Source of the DNA: a virus
Reading direction: 5' to 3' (one strand)
IMG/VR virus record: IMGVR_UViG_3300045107_000264
Coordinates: 1-23,583 of that record
DNA: 23,583 nt
In this document: positions 2,082 to 23,583 of the stretch, in pieces
Numbering within the stretch: the stretch's first letter is position 1
Layout of the letters: each line of letters opens with the position of its first letter
Notes under the pieces: model-generated
The model's database searches: none
Told to the model about the DNA's origin: nothing
What the model saw: only the letters and a program-made list of their open reading frames with translations
Translations under genes and position numbers: made by a program

Positions 2082-2507
2082 GTGGACAGCTGGAAACGGA
2101 GAATTGTTGTGTTTAGATCAGAAGAACAAGGTGGTAAAATTAAACCAGCGGGATATCAAACACCTTATACCGAAGAACAAAAATATGAATTAATTGTTAG
2201 ATGTCCTAAAGACCCTATTCATTTTATCACAAAATATTGTTGGATTATTTCTACGAAAGGCGGTCAAATGCTTTTCAATCTCTATGACTATCAGAAACAA
2301 TTAATTCTTCATTATTTAAATCACGAAAAGACAATTACATTGCTAAGTCGTCAGGTAGGTAAATGTTGTTTTTATAGAACCTTAATATGTATAAATGGAA
2401 ATAAACAAATGATTGGTGATTTATTTAATCTATCTTGGAAACATAGATGTATATCAAAATTAGAAAATGTATTAGTTATACTTGCACGTTATGCAAAAAA
2501 ATTATAA
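2082..2507 (+). CDS. terL: Large terminase, N-terminal piece, with N-terminal half of a split intein
   Basis: Residues 1-94 are the start of a T4 gp17-type packaging ATPase. They include NLYDYQKQLILHYLN and the first part of Walker A, SRQVGK (89-94). From Cys95 the sequence becomes an intein start (CCFYRTLICINGNKQMIGDL, block A), and the frame stops 47 residues into it. The matching C-terminal intein half and the rest of terminase are in the next gene (2667-4559). Joining SRQVGK to T-E-T-T restores Walker A, so the insertion site is between Lys and Thr of the P-loop. The split just after block A is the layout of atypically split TerL inteins such as AceL-TerL. The start may be GTG 2082 or, with a better ribosome binding site (CGGAGA at 2097-2102), GTG 2109. 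The last ~24 residues may be non-intein sequence. Confidence 0.85.
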   Translation: MDSWKRRIVVFRSEEQGGKIKPAGYQTPYTEEQKYELIVRCPKDPIHFITKYCWIISTKGGQMLFNLYDYQKQLILHYLNHEKTITLLSRQVGKCCFYRTLICINGNKQMIGDLFNLSWKHRCISKLENVLVILARYAKKL

Positions 2508-2520
2508 AGTGCAAATATAG

Positions 2521-2661
2521 CCGTGAAGCTTGGTATAGTGTTGTAAATAATATTACAACATCACGTTTAGGTGGTGCTGCACCTTCTATCGAAGGTTACT
2601 GGCAAATTTTGAATCACAATATGTTGTGGTCTTGAGCGTTAACTGGATAAGTACAAGCACG
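2521..2661 (+). mobile_element. TnpB-type right-end fossil in the terminase break
   Basis: This stretch lies between the two terminase pieces. It aligns with the 3' end of the TnpB element at 23052-23220 (minus strand): CGTGAAGCTTGGTATAGTG, then a hairpin-forming TCACGTTTAGGTGG (2561-2574). Next come ACCTTCTATCGAAGGT (2581-2596) and CACAATATGTTGTGGTCTTG (2615-2634), then GTTAACTGGATAAG near the end. Read in one frame it still encodes NHNMLWS, the same tail as the intact TnpB (SHNMLWS). Three hairpins are kept although the coding sequence is lost. It is a remnant, not an active element by itself. Confidence 0.7.
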
Positions 2662-2666
2662 TTAAA

Positions 2667-4559
2667 ATGCTTAGATTTTTTGCAAAAATATTGATTTTTA
2701 TCATAAAATTATTTTTATGGTGTATTGATTCTGATCATAGAAAATCTGAAAATATTGATAATAATAATATTAAAAAGTTTACAGATGTTCAAATCTGTGA
2801 TTTTCAATCAGATTTCGGACGAGTTAATAATATATTTCGAACAATTCCATATCAAACATGGTTATTAAAAACAGAAACACATGAACTTATTGCTGCTGAT
2901 AAGCATCTTGTAATTAGAGATAATGGCGACACTGCATGGATTCAAGATTTACTTCCTAATGATTTGATAAAAACTGATAATGGTATCGAAAAGGTTATAT
3001 TAGTGGAGAATTTAGGTATTAAGGTTCATATGTATGATGTGCAATTAGATACACAGGATCATCTATATTATACTAATGGGGTTCTTTCACATAATACAGA
3101 AACTACAGTTGCATTTTTACTTTGGTGGGCAATTTTTAAACCACATCAAACAATTTTAATTGCTTCATATAAAGCGGATTTTGCTAAAGCAATTATGGGC
3201 CGTCTTAAATTTATGTATGAGGAATTACCATGGTGGTTAAAACCAGGAGTGAAATCTTGGAATGTTATGAGTGTTGAATTCGAAAATGGTTCTAAAGTAA
3301 TTGCTGAAACTACTACTGAAAACACAGGTCGTGGTTATCCTGTTAATCTATTTTATTTTGATGAATTTGCATATGTTCCTCCTAATATTTCAGAAGGATT
3401 ATGGACTTCTATTTTCCCGACAATTACTAGTTCTAAAGATTGCCGATGTATTATTACTTCTACAGCAAATACTGATGAAGACAAATTTGCTCAAATTTGG
3501 TTCAATTCCCGTCAATCTAAATTTTCCGGTGATACATCATATACAAAACGTATGAGTGAAGAAGATGTTAATGAACCTGACTATGAAACATTTTGGGAAG
3601 ATGAAAATATAAAAAACGATGTTATAGAAAAAGACAATAAAGATGATATGGTGCAGGGGTTTTGGGGATTTCATGTTCCGTGGGATGCTATTCCAGGTCG
3701 TGATGAAGAATTTAAAAAGAGTGTTTTAGCTTCTGGTTATTCTGAAGAACAATGGGGTCGGGATTACGAATGCAAATTTTTAACAGACAATCCCACACTT
3801 ATTAGCGCTACAAAACTTTTAGCATTAAATTCTGTTGTTCGACCACCTCGTTTTGTTGATAGATGGGGAATGCGATGGTATGAAGAAATAAAACCATCTA
3901 CTTCATATGGTGTTGTACTTGATCCTTCTGAAGGAGTTGGACGAGATGATGCTTGTATTCAGGTTATAGAACTCCCGAACTTTATTCAAGTGGCAGAATG
4001 GAATTCAAATTTAGCGCATCAAGCTGAACAAGCAAAAATGCTTTATAGAACTATACGTCGTATTTTTAAAATACAACAAAATGATCCAGATCATAATAAC
4101 CGTTCGCAAATTTATTATTCTGTAGAATGTAATGGTATTGGTATAGGAATTCTTAATGCTATCGAGATTGAATATGAAAATAAAATTCCTGGTTATTTAA
4201 TAGATTCACGTGGTAATAAATTACGCGGAATAAGATTGACATCTTCTAATAAGAAAAATCGTTGTTTGGATATGGCAGCATTAATTGAACGTAATGTTTT
4301 TATTCCTCGTTCTCGTTATCTAGTGAGTCAATTAAAGACATTTGTTCAAAGAAGAGCTGGAGTTTATGCTGCAAAACCAGGTTCAAAAGATGATATTGTA
4401 ATGTCAGTAGTTCTTTTAATGCAGATGATAGAAGAATTAAAAGTTCAAGATTATGATATTCAAGATCGTTTATTATTTGATGTCACGGAAAATTATAATA
4501 CTAGCGATGCAGAAGAAATTTATGGTTCAAATTATAAACCATTTGCCATAATAGGATAA
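2667..4559 (+). CDS. terL: Large terminase, C-terminal piece, with C-terminal half of a split intein
   Basis: Residues ~40-143 are the C-terminal part of an intein. They contain a block B-like segment around AADKHLVI (His80) and blocks F and G as YDVQLDTQDHLYYTNGVLSH with terminal Asn143. The next residue, Thr144, is the +1 nucleophile. From Thr144 on the protein is gp17-type terminase: Walker B region VNLFYFDEFAY, coupling motif IITSTAN, then the RNase H-like packaging nuclease with acids in VVLDPSEGVGRDD, YSVECNG and GSKDDIVMS. After trans-splicing, 94 plus 487 residues give about 581, close to T4 gp17 (610). The start is uncertain: ATG 2667 adds a hydrophobic stretch (MLRFFAKILIFIIKLFLW) that is not typical of inteins, and no clear ribosome binding site is visible. 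Confidence 0.88.
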   Translation: MLRFFAKILIFIIKLFLWCIDSDHRKSENIDNNNIKKFTDVQICDFQSDFGRVNNIFRTIPYQTWLLKTETHELIAADKHLVIRDNGDTAWIQDLLPNDLIKTDNGIEKVILVENLGIKVHMYDVQLDTQDHLYYTNGVLSHNTETTVAFLLWWAIFKPHQTILIASYKADFAKAIMGRLKFMYEELPWWLKPGVKSWNVMSVEFENGSKVIAETTTENTGRGYPVNLFYFDEFAYVPPNISEGLWTSIFPTITSSKDCRCIITSTANTDEDKFAQIWFNSRQSKFSGDTSYTKRMSEEDVNEPDYETFWEDENIKNDVIEKDNKDDMVQGFWGFHVPWDAIPGRDEEFKKSVLASGYSEEQWGRDYECKFLTDNPTLISATKLLALNSVVRPPRFVDRWGMRWYEEIKPSTSYGVVLDPSEGVGRDDACIQVIELPNFIQVAEWNSNLAHQAEQAKMLYRTIRRIFKIQQNDPDHNNRSQIYYSVECNGIGIGILNAIEIEYENKIPGYLIDSRGNKLRGIRLTSSNKKNRCLDMAALIERNVFIPRSRYLVSQLKTFVQRRAGVYAAKPGSKDDIVMSVVLLMQMIEELKVQDYDIQDRLLFDVTENYNTSDAEEIYGSNYKPFAIIG

Positions 4560-10381: not shown

Positions 10382-11310
10382 TGAAACATTTAATAAGTAT
10401 AAATGATATAGATAAGAAATTTATCTCAAAAATATTCAAACGATCTTCCGAGATAAAGAACGCTCGTTTGAAATCTAATCAGTTTTTTTCTGAAAAATTA
10501 AAAGGAAAACTTCTAATAACACATTTTTTCGAACCATCAACTAGAACAAGATTAAGTTTTGAATCTGCCATGATATATCTTGGCGGAAATGTTATCGGTA
10601 GTGAGAATGCTGGAGAATTTTCGTCATTTAAAAAAGGAGAAAATTTATCTGACAATTTCCGCGTTATAAGCGGATATTGCGATATAGTTGTTGGGCGTTT
10701 TAAAAATGAAGGAGAAGCATATATTGCAGCAGAAAACTCATTAGTTCCAGTAATAAACGGCGGTGATGGAAAAGGTGAACATCCTACACAAGCATTGCTG
10801 GATATGTTTACTATCATGGAAAAATTTCCCAATCTCAATAATTTAACTATTACATTTATCGGAGATAATGCCCGTAGCAGAACAGTCCATTCATTAGCTA
10901 AGTTAATTAAACAGTTTCCATATGTTAAACTTATTCGTTTTATAAATCCATATGGACAATGTTTAGATTTTGTAAATGAATTAAAAAATATTGATACACC
11001 AAATACTCCAGATGTGGAAATAAAATACGATATAAATAAAGAATATATCGCTGATTCTGATGTAATTTATATTACAAGAAATCAAAACGAACGTGGGCAT
11101 TATATTCAAAATTATATGGTTTTTACTAATGATATGGCAAATATGATGCCAGAACATGGTATAATAATGCATCCATTACCAAGGAATTCCGAACTCCCTC
11201 TAGATGTTGATAAAAATCCAAGAGCATATTATTTTGAACAGGCACAAAATGGTTTATTCGTCAGAATGGCAATTTTAGAAGAATTGCTTAACCCTTGTTT
11301 ATCCGATTGA
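10381..11310 (+). CDS. pyrB: Aspartate carbamoyltransferase catalytic chain
   Basis: Condenses carbamoyl phosphate and aspartate to N-carbamoylaspartate, the committed step of pyrimidine synthesis. Signature residues are intact: carbamoyl phosphate loop EPSTRTRLSF (51-60), mobile loop SSFKKGE with the catalytic lysine (81-87), HPTQALLD (134-141), HPLPR (~261) and the C-terminal YFEQAQNGLFVRMAIL. At 309 residues it is full length. ATG 10381 (MKHLISINDI) matches the usual ATCase start; ATG 10375 is an alternative. No regulatory chain is seen nearby. The last codons (LSD) and the TGA lie inside the left inverted repeat of the adjoining mobile island, so the insertion replaced the native end of the gene. 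Composition matches the phage core, so it is not a recent arrival. Confidence 0.95.
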   Translation: MKHLISINDIDKKFISKIFKRSSEIKNARLKSNQFFSEKLKGKLLITHFFEPSTRTRLSFESAMIYLGGNVIGSENAGEFSSFKKGENLSDNFRVISGYCDIVVGRFKNEGEAYIAAENSLVPVINGGDGKGEHPTQALLDMFTIMEKFPNLNNLTITFIGDNARSRTVHSLAKLIKQFPYVKLIRFINPYGQCLDFVNELKNIDTPNTPDVEIKYDINKEYIADSDVIYITRNQNERGHYIQNYMVFTNDMANMMPEHGIIMHPLPRNSELPLDVDKNPRAYYFEQAQNGLFVRMAILEELLNPCLSD

Positions 11311-11316
11311 CACATA
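11299..11316 (+). repeat. Left inverted repeat of the island
   Basis: TTATCCGATTGACACATA pairs as an inverted repeat with 14172-14189. It contains the pyrB stop codon (TGA 11308-11310) and the -35 box (TTGACA 11307-11312) of the first effector promoter. The start of the element therefore terminates the upstream gene and drives its own. Confidence 0.7.
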
Positions 11317-11335
11317 TGAGCATAATATATATTAT
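11307..11335 (+). promoter_or_regulatory. Effector promoter P1 (consensus-like)
   Basis: TTGACA (11307-11312), a 17-base spacer, then TATTAT (11330-11335). A perfect 16-bp palindrome (11321-11336) covers the -10 box. Transcription from here would give an RNA starting near 11342 that contains the repeat-like leader, an aborted mini-ORF and the second promoter copy. Confidence 0.75.
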
Positions 11336-11376
11336 GTCCCGCTAACAATGGGAGACACAATTATGCCAAATCCCCA

Positions 11377-11405
11377 TTGACACATACGAACATAATATGT
11401 ATTAT
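11377..11405 (+). promoter_or_regulatory. Effector promoter P2 (consensus-like)
   Basis: TTGACA (11377-11382), a 17-base spacer, then TATTAT (11400-11405), with a dyad (11390-11407) over the -10 box. The expected start, around 11412, leaves a leader of about 23 bases that ends with the ribosome binding site GGGAG (11420-11424) before ATG 11435. Confidence 0.8.
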
Positions 11406-11434
11406 GTCCCGCTAACAATGGGAGACACAAGATT

Positions 11435-12718
11435 ATGCCAGTGCGTCGTTATAATTTTGCTCTTTATCCCACGCCTGAACAGGATGCCGTACTGCATCGG
11501 CATCGGCAAATGGTAGCTCAGTTGTGGAACGCATTGTTGCAACGGTTCGAGGATATCTCACGCCGTACCGTGCAACGCACCGTGTGGTTTGACGCCGATG
11601 GTAAACGGCATGTCGGTATCACGGTGCATAGCACTGAGTGGATTTCCGAACGCTATGCACAGGGCGAAGTCTCGGTAATACCACCGGGCAAGAATGGCCG
11701 TGCCAAGCCCTACACTGATTTTGACATGCAGAATGAGATTACTTGGCTGTGCAATTCTCATCCCGAATGGCGTGAGGCATCAGTGTGGTGCTGGCATCGC
11801 ACAGCTCAGCAGCTGCATCGCGCTTTTGAGGCGTTCTATCGGCGAGTCAAAAGCGGCCAAGGTGCAAAGGCTGGATATCCTAAATATCGCAGTACGAAGC
11901 AGCATAATAGCATTCCCCATCGCTTCCTCTCCGGTTGCAAAATGGTGCGCGATGCTCGCCACTTCCGCTCTTGGAAATTAACAGTCAAGGGCGTGCCTGG
12001 GTCAATCCATGCCCGTGGCATGTTCCCTAGCGATCCTGAGAAATGGACCGACGCGGATATCATCTGGCGTAACGGAAAGTGGTCGATTTCGGTATGCGTC
12101 GATATCGCGAGAGAGTACTCCTCAGACATACCGAGGTTGCGACGACCGTTGCTGATCCGCCTCGATCTCCTTGATGGTTTTGCCGAAATCAACGGCCGAA
12201 CCGAAACGCCGGATGAACTGGCTGATGTCTTCGAGCTGATGGATCGTCGGGATCAAATGCAGGCGGAGCATGATCGACGCTGGCCACGTGGCCGCTACCT
12301 CGATGACGAAGCCAAGGCGGAGCATGCAGATAGCGCGACAGAGATTTCCCGTCTCGCCACCCGCATTGCCCGGAAACGCGCCAATGCCCTGCATGTATGG
12401 AGCACGCGGATCGTTGAACGTGCCGCCAGTTTGCGTATCGTCAAGCCGGCCAGCATTCGCGAGGCAACCAAATCGCCAAGGGGCGACGAATCCAATTGGG
12501 GGGCGATGGTCGAGACGGTATCCAAATTGAACCGCCATGTCTTAGCATATGCGCCGGCTATGGCGGTCGAGATGCTCAAATACAAGGCCGAGGAGCGAGG
12601 AATTCGATGCGTCATCATAGAGGACGATGCACCGAATATCATGGTCGGTGGTGAATTGGTTGCCGTAGGCAAACAACTACGCCGAGCACGGCGTGCAGCA
12701 AAGAGGATCGCAGTATGA
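11435..12718 (+). CDS. TnpB/Cas12-like RNA-guided protein with degenerate RuvC site
   Basis: Probable guide-RNA-binding protein of the OrfB/TnpB-Cas12 superfamily, small type V (V-U-like), 427 residues. Family features are the N-terminal RRYNFALYPTPEQDAVL with LWNALL, the helical segment AFEAFYRRVKSGQGAKAGYP with KYRS (130-153), a beta-rich WED-like part ending WRNGKWSISVCV (211-222), and RuvC I at LLIRLDLLDGFAEING (Asp244). The RuvC II position reads LRIVKPASIREATKS, without the usual IVxEDL glutamate. After KYKAEERGIRCVIIEDDAP (382-400) the family's zinc ribbon and RuvC III aspartate are missing; only VGKQLRRARRAAKR remains. DNA cleavage is therefore unlikely and binding-only silencing more likely (inference). 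It precedes an 85-residue gene (ATGA overlap) and a CRISPR array in the same direction. A decayed transposase is the alternative, but the frame is clean. Confidence 0.8.
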   Translation: MPVRRYNFALYPTPEQDAVLHRHRQMVAQLWNALLQRFEDISRRTVQRTVWFDADGKRHVGITVHSTEWISERYAQGEVSVIPPGKNGRAKPYTDFDMQNEITWLCNSHPEWREASVWCWHRTAQQLHRAFEAFYRRVKSGQGAKAGYPKYRSTKQHNSIPHRFLSGCKMVRDARHFRSWKLTVKGVPGSIHARGMFPSDPEKWTDADIIWRNGKWSISVCVDIAREYSSDIPRLRRPLLIRLDLLDGFAEINGRTETPDELADVFELMDRRDQMQAEHDRRWPRGRYLDDEAKAEHADSATEISRLATRIARKRANALHVWSTRIVERAASLRIVKPASIREATKSPRGDESNWGAMVETVSKLNRHVLAYAPAMAVEMLKYKAEERGIRCVIIEDDAPNIMVGGELVAVGKQLRRARRAAKRIAV

Positions 12719-12972
12719 GTATGAGTTACGAAATCAAGACACCAATGCTCATTGAGGCCGCAGATGCAGCACGGGCTGTTATCGCCGGCATATCCACCGG
12801 CACAATGGATCCACGTGAAGCACGCGAAATCAATTCGGCAGCAGCAAAGCTTATCAGTGTCGTTTCCACTGATGTCAAGGCACGCTTGGCGGCACCCAAA
12901 ATCACCGCACACGAGGCAAAGTTGATCGAGAGTTCGGTCTCACCGAAGATCAACGTGCTTGCGGGAGCCTGA
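12715..12972 (+). CDS. Small protein coupled to the effector (85 aa)
   Basis: Starts in an ATGA overlap with the effector stop, so translation is probably coupled, and ends 182 bases before the first CRISPR repeat. Sequence: alanine-rich helices, with DAARAVIAGISTGTMDPREA (~18-37), INSAAAKLISVVSTDVKARL (~40-59) and ITAHEAKLIES near the end. The 'G.l.p.eA..i..AA.k.i..v' pattern resembles small phage and plasmid proteins I have seen beside regulatory genes, with no firm function. It shares the GC-rich composition of the island. A helper of the effector, or a regulator binding the dyad at its promoter, are both possible, but only position supports this. Confidence 0.7.
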   Translation: MSMSYEIKTPMLIEAADAARAVIAGISTGTMDPREAREINSAAAKLISVVSTDVKARLAAPKITAHEAKLIESSVSPKINVLAGA

Positions 12973-13154
12973 TCAATTCGAGCGGTGCCGTGACACTAGA
13001 AACCCCGACATCGTTCGAAACTATATCGACTAATGGGATATGCAAGTATCATGTCATCGTAGGCGAAAAATGATGATGTCCAGATATGGCGATTCAAGAC
13101 CGCTCGAAAAGCGGACCGCAATGGCATGTAATTACTCGATATTTCCCATCAGCC
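12973..13154 (+). promoter_or_regulatory. Putative CRISPR leader
   Basis: This non-coding stretch of 182 bases lies between the small gene and the first, perfectly conserved repeat. The array's degenerate end is at the other side, which makes this the leader side. A hairpin (CCGCT at 13100-13104, AGCGG at 13110-13114) is visible. GACCGCAA at 13114-13121 recurs at the ends of spacers 5 and 6. CTAATGGGA at 13030-13038 vaguely echoes the effector leader. I find no convincing consensus promoter and no anti-repeat that would mark a tracrRNA. Confidence 0.45.
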
Positions 13155-14065
13155 GACGCAACATCCGGCCCGCCGGGTTAATAGCGGGAGCAAGGACGGG
13201 ATTTTTTACGTTTTTCCGGAAGTCTGGACGCAACATCCGGCCCGCCGGGTTAATAGCGGGAGGACGACATCGAGTGCCGCATGGATCCGGCCGGCCTCGA
13301 CGCAACATCCGGCCCGCCGGGTTAATAGCGGGAGTATGGGAGTGAGGTTCGTGATGGTGGCCCAACAGCGGCGACGCAACATCCGGCCCGCCGGGTTAAT
13401 AGCGGGAGCAGCTGAGTTCGAAGCCGCCAATGCCCCAATAACAGAGACGCAACATCCGGCCCGCCGGGTTAATAGCGGGAGGTTTCTCCTAAGACGGTTG
13501 CGGCGCGCGACCGCAAGACGCAACATCCGGCCCGCCGGGTTAATAGCGGGAGGGCAGCATCGACAAAACTAAGAACGCCACCGACCGCAAGACGCAACAT
13601 CCGGCCCGCCGGGTTAATAGCGGGAGGGTTTTAAAGACCGCTGCGTATGCTAGTTTCCGCCACGACGCAACATCCGACCCGCCGGGTTAATAGCGGGAGA
13701 TGGCAGGGACGTGTACGACGCAACACCCAGCACGCGACGCAACATCCGGCCCGTCGGGTTAATAACGGGAGAACCTGAAGAAGCACCTCAAGGACCAGCT
13801 CAAGGCGGCGAGACGCAATATCCGGCCCGCCGGGTTAACAGCGGGAGGTAACCATCGGAGTTGAACCACACGACATGCGGTATGACGCAACACCCGGCCC
13901 GCCGGGTTAACAGCGGGAGGCCGTGGTTGCACTGGGTACGCCGCTGTGGTACGAACGACACCCGGCCCGCCGGGTTAATAGCGGGAGTGGGACAATTCCA
14001 ATATTTTCATCTCAGCGAAGTCTGACACAACACAAACACCCGGCCCGCCGGGTTAACAACGGGAG
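13155..14065 (+). CRISPR. CRISPR array, 13 repeats and 12 spacers
   Basis: The repeat is 36 bases: GACGCAACATCCGGCC (1-16) then CGCCGGGTTAATAGCGGGAG (17-36). Repeats start at 13155, 13227, 13299, 13373, 13446, 13517, 13591, 13664, 13736, 13812, 13884, 13952 and 14030. Spacers are 32-42 bases, mostly 35-38, and all differ. Repeats 1-7 are identical. From repeat 8 on they carry changes, and the 5' parts of 12 and 13 are badly decayed, which places the leader on the left and transcription on the plus strand, like the effector. CCCGC (15-19) can pair with GCGGG (30-34), leaving AG before the spacer. Repeat 9 changes both sides of one pair (CCCGT, ACGGG). Spacer 8 contains a copy of the first 12 repeat bases (13717-13728). 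No cas1 or cas2 is nearby. Long open frames over the array are artefacts. Confidence 0.97.
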
Positions 14066-14132
14066 GCTCTCGATGCGAGTGCGGACGCCATCGTGGGAAA
14101 AGAGAAGGTTGTCGGGATCGAAAATTGGCAAG

Positions 14133-14152
14133 GCGGGGATGTCTTTCCCCGC
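14133..14152 (+). terminator. Hairpin after the CRISPR array
   Basis: GCGGGGA (14133-14139) pairs with TCCCCGC (14146-14152) around a 6-base loop, followed by TATTATTC. It could end the array transcript or be the subterminal hairpin of the transposon right end, which lies 20 bases further on. Other TnpB right ends in the window also have a hairpin in this position. Confidence 0.55.
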
Positions 14153-14171
14153 TATTATTCAGTTGTGGATG

Positions 14172-14189
14172 TATGTGTCAACCGAATAA
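14172..14189 (-). repeat. Right inverted repeat of the island
   Basis: On the minus strand this reads TTATTCGGTTGACACATA, 16 of 18 identical to 11299-11316. The plus-strand reading, GTCAACCGAATAAGCACG, is the same end type found at 23063-23079 (minus) and, more decayed, at 2638-2650 and 1144-1160. Confidence 0.7.
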
Positions 14190-14201
14190 GCACGCCTTTT
14201 T

Positions 14202-14534
14202 CTATACTACATCATGTGTATCTTTTTGATGAAAATTATCGGAATAACGTATAATTGCAAATTGAATTTCATGTATAGCTTGTTCATGGGTCAAATTAAA
14301 CCATTCTCCATGTAAACATTTATGACGATTAGCAACATGTACAATTTTTTCGATATATGGAGCTTCTGATTCAGTAACTGTTTCTTTATGAACAAGTGTT
14401 AACTTCCGTTCGTGCCCAGTTTGAAGTTCTTTTAAACGACGTTGCGGATCACTAGAATACCCGATCTTAACAGTATTTGGTCCAGATGCTATTACGTATA
14501 CAAACATAAAGTATTTATCTGTTGCATCTACCAT
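14202..14534 (-). CDS. GIY-YIG / T5orf172-like nuclease-domain protein (110 aa)
   Basis: The start is taken at ATG 14534 (MVDATDKYFMFVYVIASGPN), because the longer frame from 14564 runs into the inverted repeat of the neighbouring cassette. GIY-YIG-like features are FVYVIA (first strand), VKIGYSSDPQRRLKELQTG (the 'KIG' strand and the Arg-containing helix) and a later HGEWFNLTHEQA. This pattern is that of the short T5orf172 or MUG113-type GIY-YIG domains, in phages often orphan nucleases or parts of larger proteins. AT-rich composition places it with the phage core. It ends convergently just beyond the island's right end. The sequence upstream of its start now belongs to the inserted cassette, so its original promoter may be lost. 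Confidence 0.75.
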   Translation of the reverse strand: MVDATDKYFMFVYVIASGPNTVKIGYSSDPQRRLKELQTGHERKLTLVHKETVTESEAPYIEKIVHVANRHKCLHGEWFNLTHEQAIHEIQFAIIRYSDNFHQKDTHDVV

Positions 14535-14536
14535 AA

Positions 14537-15149
14537 CGCATCTATCCCTTTGACAAAGGATCACGCGGCCAAATCCAGAGGATCACATGCACAAAGCGAC
14601 CAGGAATCTCGTCGATACCTATTCGGGCTTCGCGGTCGAGACGTTGAATATCAGGGGAATGATGAAATCACGGGTCGGCAAGTCTCTTGCCGACGCCGCG
14701 CTCGGAGAGTTCATTCGGATTCTCCATTACAAGGTCGAATGGGCGGGACGCCAGTGGTTGACACTGTCCGCTTTCACCCGCAGCACGGGCATCTGTCCGG
14801 ATTGCGGGACAGTCGGCCCGAAACTGCCGTTGGCAGTGCGGGAATGGGCGTGCTCCGTTTGCGGGGCCGTCCATGACCGTGATGTCGCGGCGGCGCAAGT
14901 TGTGCTGGCGAAGTGCCAGTCTCAGAGATTGGGTTTGCAACAGAGTTCTGCGAACTCCGCAGGAGCTTCGCAGCCAATCCAGGTAGGGCAAGCATTGTCC
15001 GAACCAGTCCGCGAGGACGAAAAGCGAGGTATTGCCGTGGGTATCGGGATTTCTTCAACCGAGGGAGTTAGGTATTACGGGCCACCTACGAATGTCTTGA
15101 TGGCAGGGGATTGCGCTGGTCGCGTTCCTTTGTCAAAGGGATAGATGCG
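14537..15149 (+). mobile_element. 613-bp cassette with perfect 23-bp inverted ends and a partial tnpB
   Basis: The first 23 bases (14537-14559, starting CGCATCTATCCCTTTGAC) are the exact reverse complement of the last 23 (15127-15149). Similarity continues a few bases inward (ATCACGCG against CGCGTT). Each end contains the near-palindrome CCTTTG-N-CAAAGG. Between them is GC-rich sequence coding for the C-terminal half of a TnpB. IS200/IS605 elements do not normally have such ends, so this is either a derivative mobilised by other means or the product of a rearrangement between two copies of a phage sequence. No target duplication is evident. Confidence 0.6.
14587..15144 (+). pseudogene. tnpB: TnpB C-terminal fragment (RuvC II, zinc ribbon, RuvC III)
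   Basis: Contains the C-terminal half of an IS605-family TnpB RNA-guided nuclease. RuvC II glutamate lies in FAVETLNIRGM (Glu18). The segment GEFIRILHYKVEWAG (40-54) is typical. The zinc ribbon has CPDC (70-73) and CSVC (89-92), and the RuvC III aspartate lies in HDRDVAAAQ (Asp99). The N-terminal RNA-binding half and RuvC I are absent. In-frame codons upstream of the ATG (from 14554) still read like TnpB (RPNPEDH), and a stop lies at 14551 within the inverted repeat. Two catalytic acids are kept, the opposite of the island effector. The 3' end of the frame runs into the other inverted repeat (PLSKG then stop). Probably not functional alone. Confidence 0.8.
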
Positions 15150-23051: not shown

Positions 23052-23160
23052 GTGCTTATCGCGTGCTTATCCGGTTGACGCCCAAGACCACAACATATTG
23101 TGACTCGGTGTTTTCCAGCTTCCCTCAACAGGAGGCGTGCTACCGCATGAACGCGGCATT
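23052..23160 (-). mobile_element. Right end of the TnpB element, possible guide-RNA (omega RNA) scaffold
   Basis: Read on the minus strand, this is the 3' part of the tnpB gene and the element's end. It can form three hairpins: CCGC/GCGG (23143-23156), CCTC/GAGG (23123-23135) and CACAA/TTGTG (23089-23102). It ends GTCAACCGGATAAGCACG (about 23063-23080), with a second GATAAGCACG at 23051-23060. In TnpB systems the guide RNA scaffold comes from exactly this region, with the guide taken from the flank. The same hairpins recur in fossils at 1191-1239, 2561-2628 and 17648-17661. Confidence 0.65.
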
Positions 23161-23582
23161 GTGACAGGTCGCCCCGTCACACCACTACACCCAACTTCAC
23201 GTATTGTTCGAGCCGAGTTCACATCTCGGCTATGGTGAGCCCCACATTCCGAACATACCCAAAGTCTTATTCGTAAGCCTGCGATACCTTTAGGGCCACT
23301 CAATGCACCGCATTGAGAACAGGTTACGGTCGTGAATCTCTCGTCAACTTCCACATACCTATCCTGACATTTGTAAGTCAAAAAAGAGCGGAAAGTTGAC
23401 CAGCCAGCATCCAACACGGACTTTGCTATCCGTGTTTTAGCCAGTTTAGAGGAATTAACGTTACCGACGACGATTAGCGCGTGTCGAGCCGCCAGTTTTG
23501 TTGTTATTTTATGCAGAAAATCTTTGCGACAGTTAGCGATCTTTTTGTGGATCACTTTTACCCGCCGTTTTTGCTTTGCACG
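23067..23582 (-). CDS. tnpB: TnpB RNA-guided nuclease, C-terminal part, runs off the window
   Basis: The frame is open to the window edge, with more TnpB-like codons upstream of the first visible GTG (23555), so the gene is partial, not truncated. Recognisable parts are IHKKIANCRKDFLHKITTKL, SKLAKTRIAKSVLDAGWSTF, then the zinc ribbon FTTVTCSQCGALSGPKGIAG and WVCSECGAHHSRDVNSARTI with the RuvC III aspartate. The RuvC II position reads ALIVVGNVNSSKL rather than IVxEDL. Many IS1341-type relatives, as I recall them, share the GN form, so this alone does not show inactivity. The tail SHNMLWSWASTG overlaps the right-end hairpins. Composition is richer in GC than the phage core. Confidence 0.85.
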   Translation of the reverse strand, partial: RAKQKRRVKVIHKKIANCRKDFLHKITTKLAARHALIVVGNVNSSKLAKTRIAKSVLDAGWSTFRSFLTYKCQDRYVEVDERFTTVTCSQCGALSGPKGIAGLRIRLWVCSECGAHHSRDVNSARTIREVGCSGVTGRPVTMPRSCGSTPPVEGSWKTPSHNMLWSWASTG

Positions 23583-23583
23583 T

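What the first reader, a model, noticed from the sequence alone, without database searches (positions are those of the whole stretch)
2082..4559. Fractured terminase: intein split within the Walker A motif, with a TnpB fossil in the gap
Seen: terminase stops 47 residues into an intein that begins after GK of the P-loop. The second gene resumes with intein blocks B, F and G, ends in SHN, and continues with Thr and the rest of terminase. Known: atypically split TerL inteins with a short N-half, such as AceL-TerL, work by trans-splicing. Here a TnpB-type right-end fossil (2521-2661) fills the break. Inference: a transposon insertion may have split a once contiguous intein, and the phage survived because the halves can still splice in trans.
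Basis: partly seen in the sequence, partly recalled or inferred. Interest (0 to 1): 0.82.

Follow-up and report, generated by a model that had tools for sequence, protein, structure and literature searches.

The report
Split-intein phage terminase, transposon scrap between
A phage's DNA-packaging motor gene is broken into two genes whose protein halves are very probably rejoined by a natural split intein; this arrangement is already known, and the transposon fragment in the gap landed there after the split rather than causing it.

Summary
Terminase gene 1 (2082-2507) ends 47 residues into an intein inserted in the Walker A motif (SRQVGK^TETT). Gene 2 (2667-4559) carries the other 143 intein residues and the rest of the terminase. 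A decayed TnpB 3' end plus right end (2522-2654) lies between them. A second assembly has the same arrangement. Joined by the translated gap, the two halves are predicted as a complete HINT fold (VidaL, Z 19.1). All sequence features needed for splicing are present, so trans-splicing to a 581-aa terminase is very likely but untested.

The inferred cause is not supported. The two nearest inteins (IMG/VR 3300009697 and the isolated Agrobacterium phage Atu_ph07; joint clade 100/99) are split at the same place, with gaps of 9 and 11 nt and no TnpB. Both intein halves have homologous ends across this clade, and the fossil sits wholly between them. Of 79 classified relatives, 48 are split and 11 contiguous; large gaps usually hold homing-endonuclease-like genes. 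The TnpB scrap is one of several related copies in about 31 kb of this phage: a later insertion. This is a new member of a known kind, with an unusual gap occupant.

The parts
2082..2363 (+). Terminase large subunit N-extein, 94 aa, ends SRQVGK (first part of Walker A)
   Evidence: PHROG terminase families E 1e-14; 63% identical to intein-free L003
2364..2507 (+). Intein N-half, 47 aa from Cys1, with its stop codon TAA 2505-2507
   Evidence: 39% identical to the split N-half of L032, whose stop region is homologous; model pLDDT 91-95
2508..2521 (+). Remnant of the native intergenic spacer
   Evidence: No TnpB homology; follows the homologous stop codon
2522..2654 (+). TnpB 3'-end and right-end fossil
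   Evidence: Alignment to TnpB 23201-23063 (-); right boundary from four other copies
2655..2666 (+). Native spacer before the second gene
   Evidence: Outside the conserved right end
2667..3095 (+). Intein C-half, 143 aa, ending SHN
   Evidence: 49-50% identical to split C-halves of Atu_ph07 and L032; VidaL profile match E 3.6e-10; model mostly over 90 pLDDT
3096..4559 (+). Terminase large subunit C-extein, 487 aa, begins TETT
   Evidence: Pfam Terminase_6N E 4e-9; 74% identical to L003
23067..23583 (-). TnpB gene cut by the window end; parent family of the fossil
   Evidence: PF07282 E 4e-18 and PF01385; continued in L111

Best explanation
The phage makes its terminase large subunit as two proteins: the terminase N-part plus 47 intein residues, and 143 intein residues plus the rest of the terminase. 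The two intein pieces associate into one HINT domain, the Cys1/Asn/Thr+1 chemistry excises the intein, and the GK and T of Walker A are joined, giving an active 581-aa terminase. The split was inherited: it is shared with related phages that have almost no gap between the genes. Later a member of a TnpB element family that is multi-copy in this phage inserted into the tolerated spacer between the two genes and decayed to a 133-bp 3' end. Shown here: gene structure, homology, shared split position, fold model and fossil identity. Inferred: that splicing occurs, and the order of events (parsimony).
For: Structure and reproducibility. Catalytic residues kept: Cys1, block-B His, SHN and Thr+1. Read through the gap as one chain, the window's halves model at pLDDT 91-95 for the N-half and about 70-98 (mostly over 90) for the C-half, while most of the translated fossil linker is at 51-68. 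The model matches VidaL at Z 19.1, rmsd 1.5 over 121 residues spanning both halves, and many other inteins. Nearest relatives are split at the same place without TnpB and form a 100/99 clade with the window. The C-extein is under strong purifying selection against L003. An intein-free close relative gives the empty site, ARQSGK|TESA. TnpB occurs in 1 of 47 records of relatives, and local searches found none in their gaps, whereas this phage has several copies in about 31 kb.
Against: No splicing was measured. The second gene has no obvious ribosome-binding site ahead of ATG 2667. The fold model joins the halves through a linker that does not exist in the phage. Intein identities (24-50%) are low, and the order of events rests on parsimony over three sequences.
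Confidence: 0.86

Rival explanations
1. A TnpB transposon inserted into a contiguous intein and split it; the halves survived because they still splice in trans.
For: A TnpB fossil lies exactly in the break. Contiguous inteins exist at the same site in Kuttervirus Maynard and in IMG/VR contigs such as L101.
Against: The closest two inteins share the split and split point without any TnpB; both half ends are homologous across the clade and untouched by the fossil.
Confidence: 0.05
2. The terminase is a broken pseudogene and the phage relies on another intact terminase.
For: The genome is a fragment, so a second copy cannot be excluded; no clear ribosome-binding site ahead of gene 2.
Against: Both genes are intact with all splicing residues; the extein is under purifying selection; no second terminase in the four held contigs; the same layout is conserved in other phages.
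Confidence: 0.06
3. The TnpB element settled in the spacer as the mobility nuclease of the split intein, in place of the usual homing endonuclease, and later decayed.
For: Large gaps in relatives usually hold nuclease-like genes. TnpB is an RNA-guided nuclease (PMC8612924). Intein identity exceeds extein identity among the three phages, suggesting transfer.
Against: No intact TnpB in any examined gap; TnpB is multi-copy in this phage, so chance insertion suffices; the near-gapless relatives lack any nuclease in the gap.
Confidence: 0.05

Closest known systems
Fractured genes with split inteins and free-standing homing endonucleases (Dassa et al. 2009, NAR 37:2560; cited through PMC6892783 and PMC11766414, full text not held)
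   Same: An essential phage gene broken inside an intein, halves in separate genes, a mobile-element-derived gap
   Different: Gap holds a TnpB 3'-end fossil, not a homing endonuclease gene
Naturally split TerL inteins AceL-TerL (25+104), GOS-TerL (37+115), Cat-TerL (30+104), as listed in PMC11766414
   Same: Short N-half, long C-half, in terminase large subunit
   Different: Here 47+143 with an extra helix predicted in each half; +1 residue is Thr in Walker A, whereas the review lists Cys, so probably another insertion site
Agrobacterium phage Atu_ph07 TerL split intein (MF403008; ASV44708 and ASV44707)
   Same: Same insertion site, same split position, 49% identical C-half
   Different: Ser1 instead of Cys1; genes 11 nt apart or overlapping as TGATG; the genome paper does not mention an intein
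P-loop TerL inteins: mycobacteriophage TerL1-a (PMC5050341) and the contiguous Kuttervirus Maynard intein (KF669654)
   Same: Inserted between Lys and Thr of Walker A
   Different: Annotated as one contiguous gene (Maynard); the mycobacteriophage paper reports no split intein
VidaL split intein (PDB 6vgv)
   Same: Same HINT fold, best structural match
   Different: Only 23% identical; much shorter N-half (from memory)

Membership tests
Intein (HINT protein-splicing domain) | Nucleophile at position 1, block-B His, C-terminal His-Asn, nucleophile at +1 | tested here: met
   Cys1, AADKH, SHN, Thr+1
Intein (HINT protein-splicing domain) | HINT fold | tested here: met
   Model pLDDT 85.6; VidaL Z 19.1
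Intein (HINT protein-splicing domain) | Intein-free homologue joins the exteins exactly at the site | tested here: met
   L003 reads ARQSGKTESAAAFLLWWAIFKP
Atypically split TerL intein | Halves encoded by separate genes, short N-half | tested here: met
   47 + 143 aa, genes 159 nt apart
Atypically split TerL intein | Trans-splicing activity | not testable with these tools
   Needs co-expression or proteomics
Fractured gene with homing endonuclease in the gap | Free-standing endonuclease gene between the halves | tested here: not met
   The 159-nt gap holds only a TnpB 3'-end fossil
TnpB element (IS200/IS605 or IS607 type), for the fossil | Homology to TnpB C-terminus and right end | tested here: met
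   2522-2654 vs 23201-23063; PF07282 in the parent copy
TnpB element (IS200/IS605 or IS607 type), for the fossil | Intact nuclease and both ends | tested here: not met
   133 bp only; no nuclease core and no left end found

The most novel reading that the evidence does not exclude
A TnpB element occupied the spacer of a split intein and acted there as an RNA-guided homing nuclease, replacing the usual homing endonuclease and moving the split terminase intein between phages.
Probability: 0.05. Interest if true: 0.75.

Novelty: new member of a known kind. Interest (0 to 1): 0.38.

Why it matters
It indicates that Walker A split TerL inteins are common in environmental phages, and it identifies one in a cultured phage (Atu_ph07), where obligatory trans-splicing of the packaging motor can be tested directly. 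The gap between the halves behaves as a place where mobile DNA is tolerated: homing-endonuclease-like genes in most relatives with large gaps, a TnpB scrap here, nothing in others.

Tried and rejected
Sequencing or assembly error: rejected, identical in a second assembly. Transposon as the cause of the split: rejected from relatives. TnpB as a recurrent gap occupant: none found in the gaps of other relatives. Second terminase in held contigs: none. Homology of the fossil upstream of 2522 into the IntN coding region (the 'YTCTLCKK..' frame): considered, not supported by the alignment. Rfam scan of the window: nothing. Search for this right end in bacterial genomes: none, so the host stays unknown. 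Promoter and terminator scan: at chance level. A first structure alignment (A3) was discarded because short N-halves misaligned. A further relatives scan was fetched but not classified. The Dassa 2009 full text is not held.

Full report
What is there. The window is a 23.6-kb fragment of a phage genome (IMG/VR record) with T4-like replication and packaging genes (terminase, UvsX-like recombinase, DnaB-like helicase, primase, dUTPase). The terminase large subunit is encoded by two genes. Gene 1 (2082-2507) gives 94 residues of terminase ending in SRQVGK, then 47 residues starting with Cys that form the N-half of an intein. Gene 2 (2667-4559) gives 143 intein residues ending in SHN, then TETT and the rest of terminase. 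Both pieces match terminase families (Pfam for gene 2). The insertion separates the Lys and Thr of Walker A, so without splicing the ATPase motif is incomplete. Such P-loop insertions are a known, common TerL intein site (PMC5050341).

Is it real. A second IMG/VR contig (3300045256_000239) has the identical arrangement (8055 of 8056 overlapping bases); it may be the same phage population in a sister sample. A close relative with a 74% identical C-extein (L003) has no intein and reads straight through, ARQSGKTESAAAFLLWWAIFKP, which gives the exact empty site. In the C-extein, differences from L003 sit mainly in third codon positions (0.70 against 0.24 and 0.12), so the terminase is under purifying selection. 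The intein halves are too diverged for a clean test of this kind.

How it most likely works. The catalytic positions of an intein are kept. Profile search finds VidaL (6vgv, E 3.6e-10) and gp41-1 inteins among solved structures. Reading the two halves and the translated gap as one chain gives a confident model of a complete HINT domain: the N-half about 91-95 pLDDT, the C-half about 70-98 with most of it above 90, and most of the translated fossil between them only 51-68. The model matches VidaL at Z 19.1 and rmsd 1.5 over 121 residues spanning both halves. The nearest relative, L032, modelled the same way, also matches inteins. Each half carries an extra helix near the split point, so the break falls in a linker between two helices. 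That splicing happens is inferred, not measured.

Did a transposon split it. Atu_ph07, an isolated Agrobacterium phage, has a terminase annotated as two genes. The first ends RQLGK + SVHKST..., and the second starts with an intein C-half 49% identical to the window's; the genes are 11 nt apart, or overlap as TGATG. L032 (3300009697) is split with a 9-nt gap, by a single in-frame TAG followed by ATG after three codons. The three form a clade with support 100/99. The ends of the halves are homologous: the stop region of the N-half (GCAAAAAAATTATAA here, GGAAAAAAATTGTAG in L032) and the start Met and following helix of the C-half. The fossil lies entirely between these ends. The split is therefore most simply older than, and independent of, the TnpB insertion.

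Wider picture. A scan for relatives of the C-half gave 319 viral matches, of which the best 80 were held. Of 79 classified, 48 were split, 11 contiguous, and 20 lacked the N-part or were cut by a contig end. The automatic sorting is imperfect for a few (L035, L036, L058, L069 and L087 look misparsed or carry more than one intein), so these counts are approximate. Of ten representative gap genes scanned, most matched MTES_1575 or DUF559 nuclease-like families or DUF7487, several of them weakly. That fits the fractured-gene arrangement described by Dassa et al. Two contigs with near-identical inteins differ by a gap of 1812 or 47 nt (L056 and L059), so gap contents come and go. The tree needs about six changes between split and contiguous. 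Inteins of the window, L032 and Atu_ph07 are more alike (49-50%) than their C-exteins (37%), and the nearest extein (L003) has no intein. Both observations suggest horizontal movement.

The fossil. Window 2522-2654 corresponds to the last codons of TnpB and its right end as seen at 23201-23063 (-). Comparing copies shows a sharp boundary after GGATAAGCAC. Some predicted hairpins differ from the intact copy by paired changes, so the fossil may come from a diverged sister element; this is weak evidence from five sequences. TnpB or right-end copies are frequent in this phage: one left of the window (L112), the fossil, the copy at 23067-23583 that continues into L111 (2266-3521), a short derivative at L111 885-1177, and a partial right end at 14162-14195. 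Among 47 records of relatives only one carries TnpB, far from its terminase, and local searches found none in the gaps. Chance insertion into a tolerated spacer explains this best.

Verdict. Observation confirmed; mechanism (trans-splicing) very likely; proposed cause (a transposon split the intein) not supported. A new member of a known kind with an unusual gap occupant.

Noticed in passing
window 11303-14195: A 427-aa Cas12u4/Cas12f-like protein (11435-12718, PADLOC E 2e-15) preceded by a 58-nt direct repeat and followed by a 13-copy CRISPR-like array (13146-14067, period 68-78) and then a TnpB-style right end at 14162-14195: a CRISPR array seemingly lying between a TnpB-like gene and its right end. 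No spacer matched any sequence held here.
   Followed up: partly
window 14202-15149: A T5orf172/GIY-YIG gene (14202-14564, -) and a separate TnpB/Cas12f C-terminal piece (14587-15144, +), with 29-nt inverted repeats at 14537-14565 and 15121-15149.
   Followed up: no
L111 2266-3521: The full TnpB copy, broken into two frames, is flanked by 37-nt perfectly complementary inverted repeats; a shorter derivative at 885-1177 has the same layout. Terminal inverted repeats are not expected for IS200/IS605-type elements (from memory).
   Followed up: partly
L014, L029, L030 (Salicola phage SCTP-2, MF360958): Terminase is encoded by three distant genes (429.4 kb -, 256.4 kb +, 216-218 kb -). Sequence suggests two split inteins, at Walker A and near Walker B, plus a third contiguous intein.
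   Followed up: partly
L042 around 3559 (-) and 3880-4438 (+): Intein-bearing terminase N-part and C-part lie on opposite strands in one contig, so the halves can be rearranged.
   Followed up: no
L013 2570-4761: Isolated phage Atu_ph07 carries a split TerL intein with Ser1 that its genome paper does not mention.
   Followed up: yes
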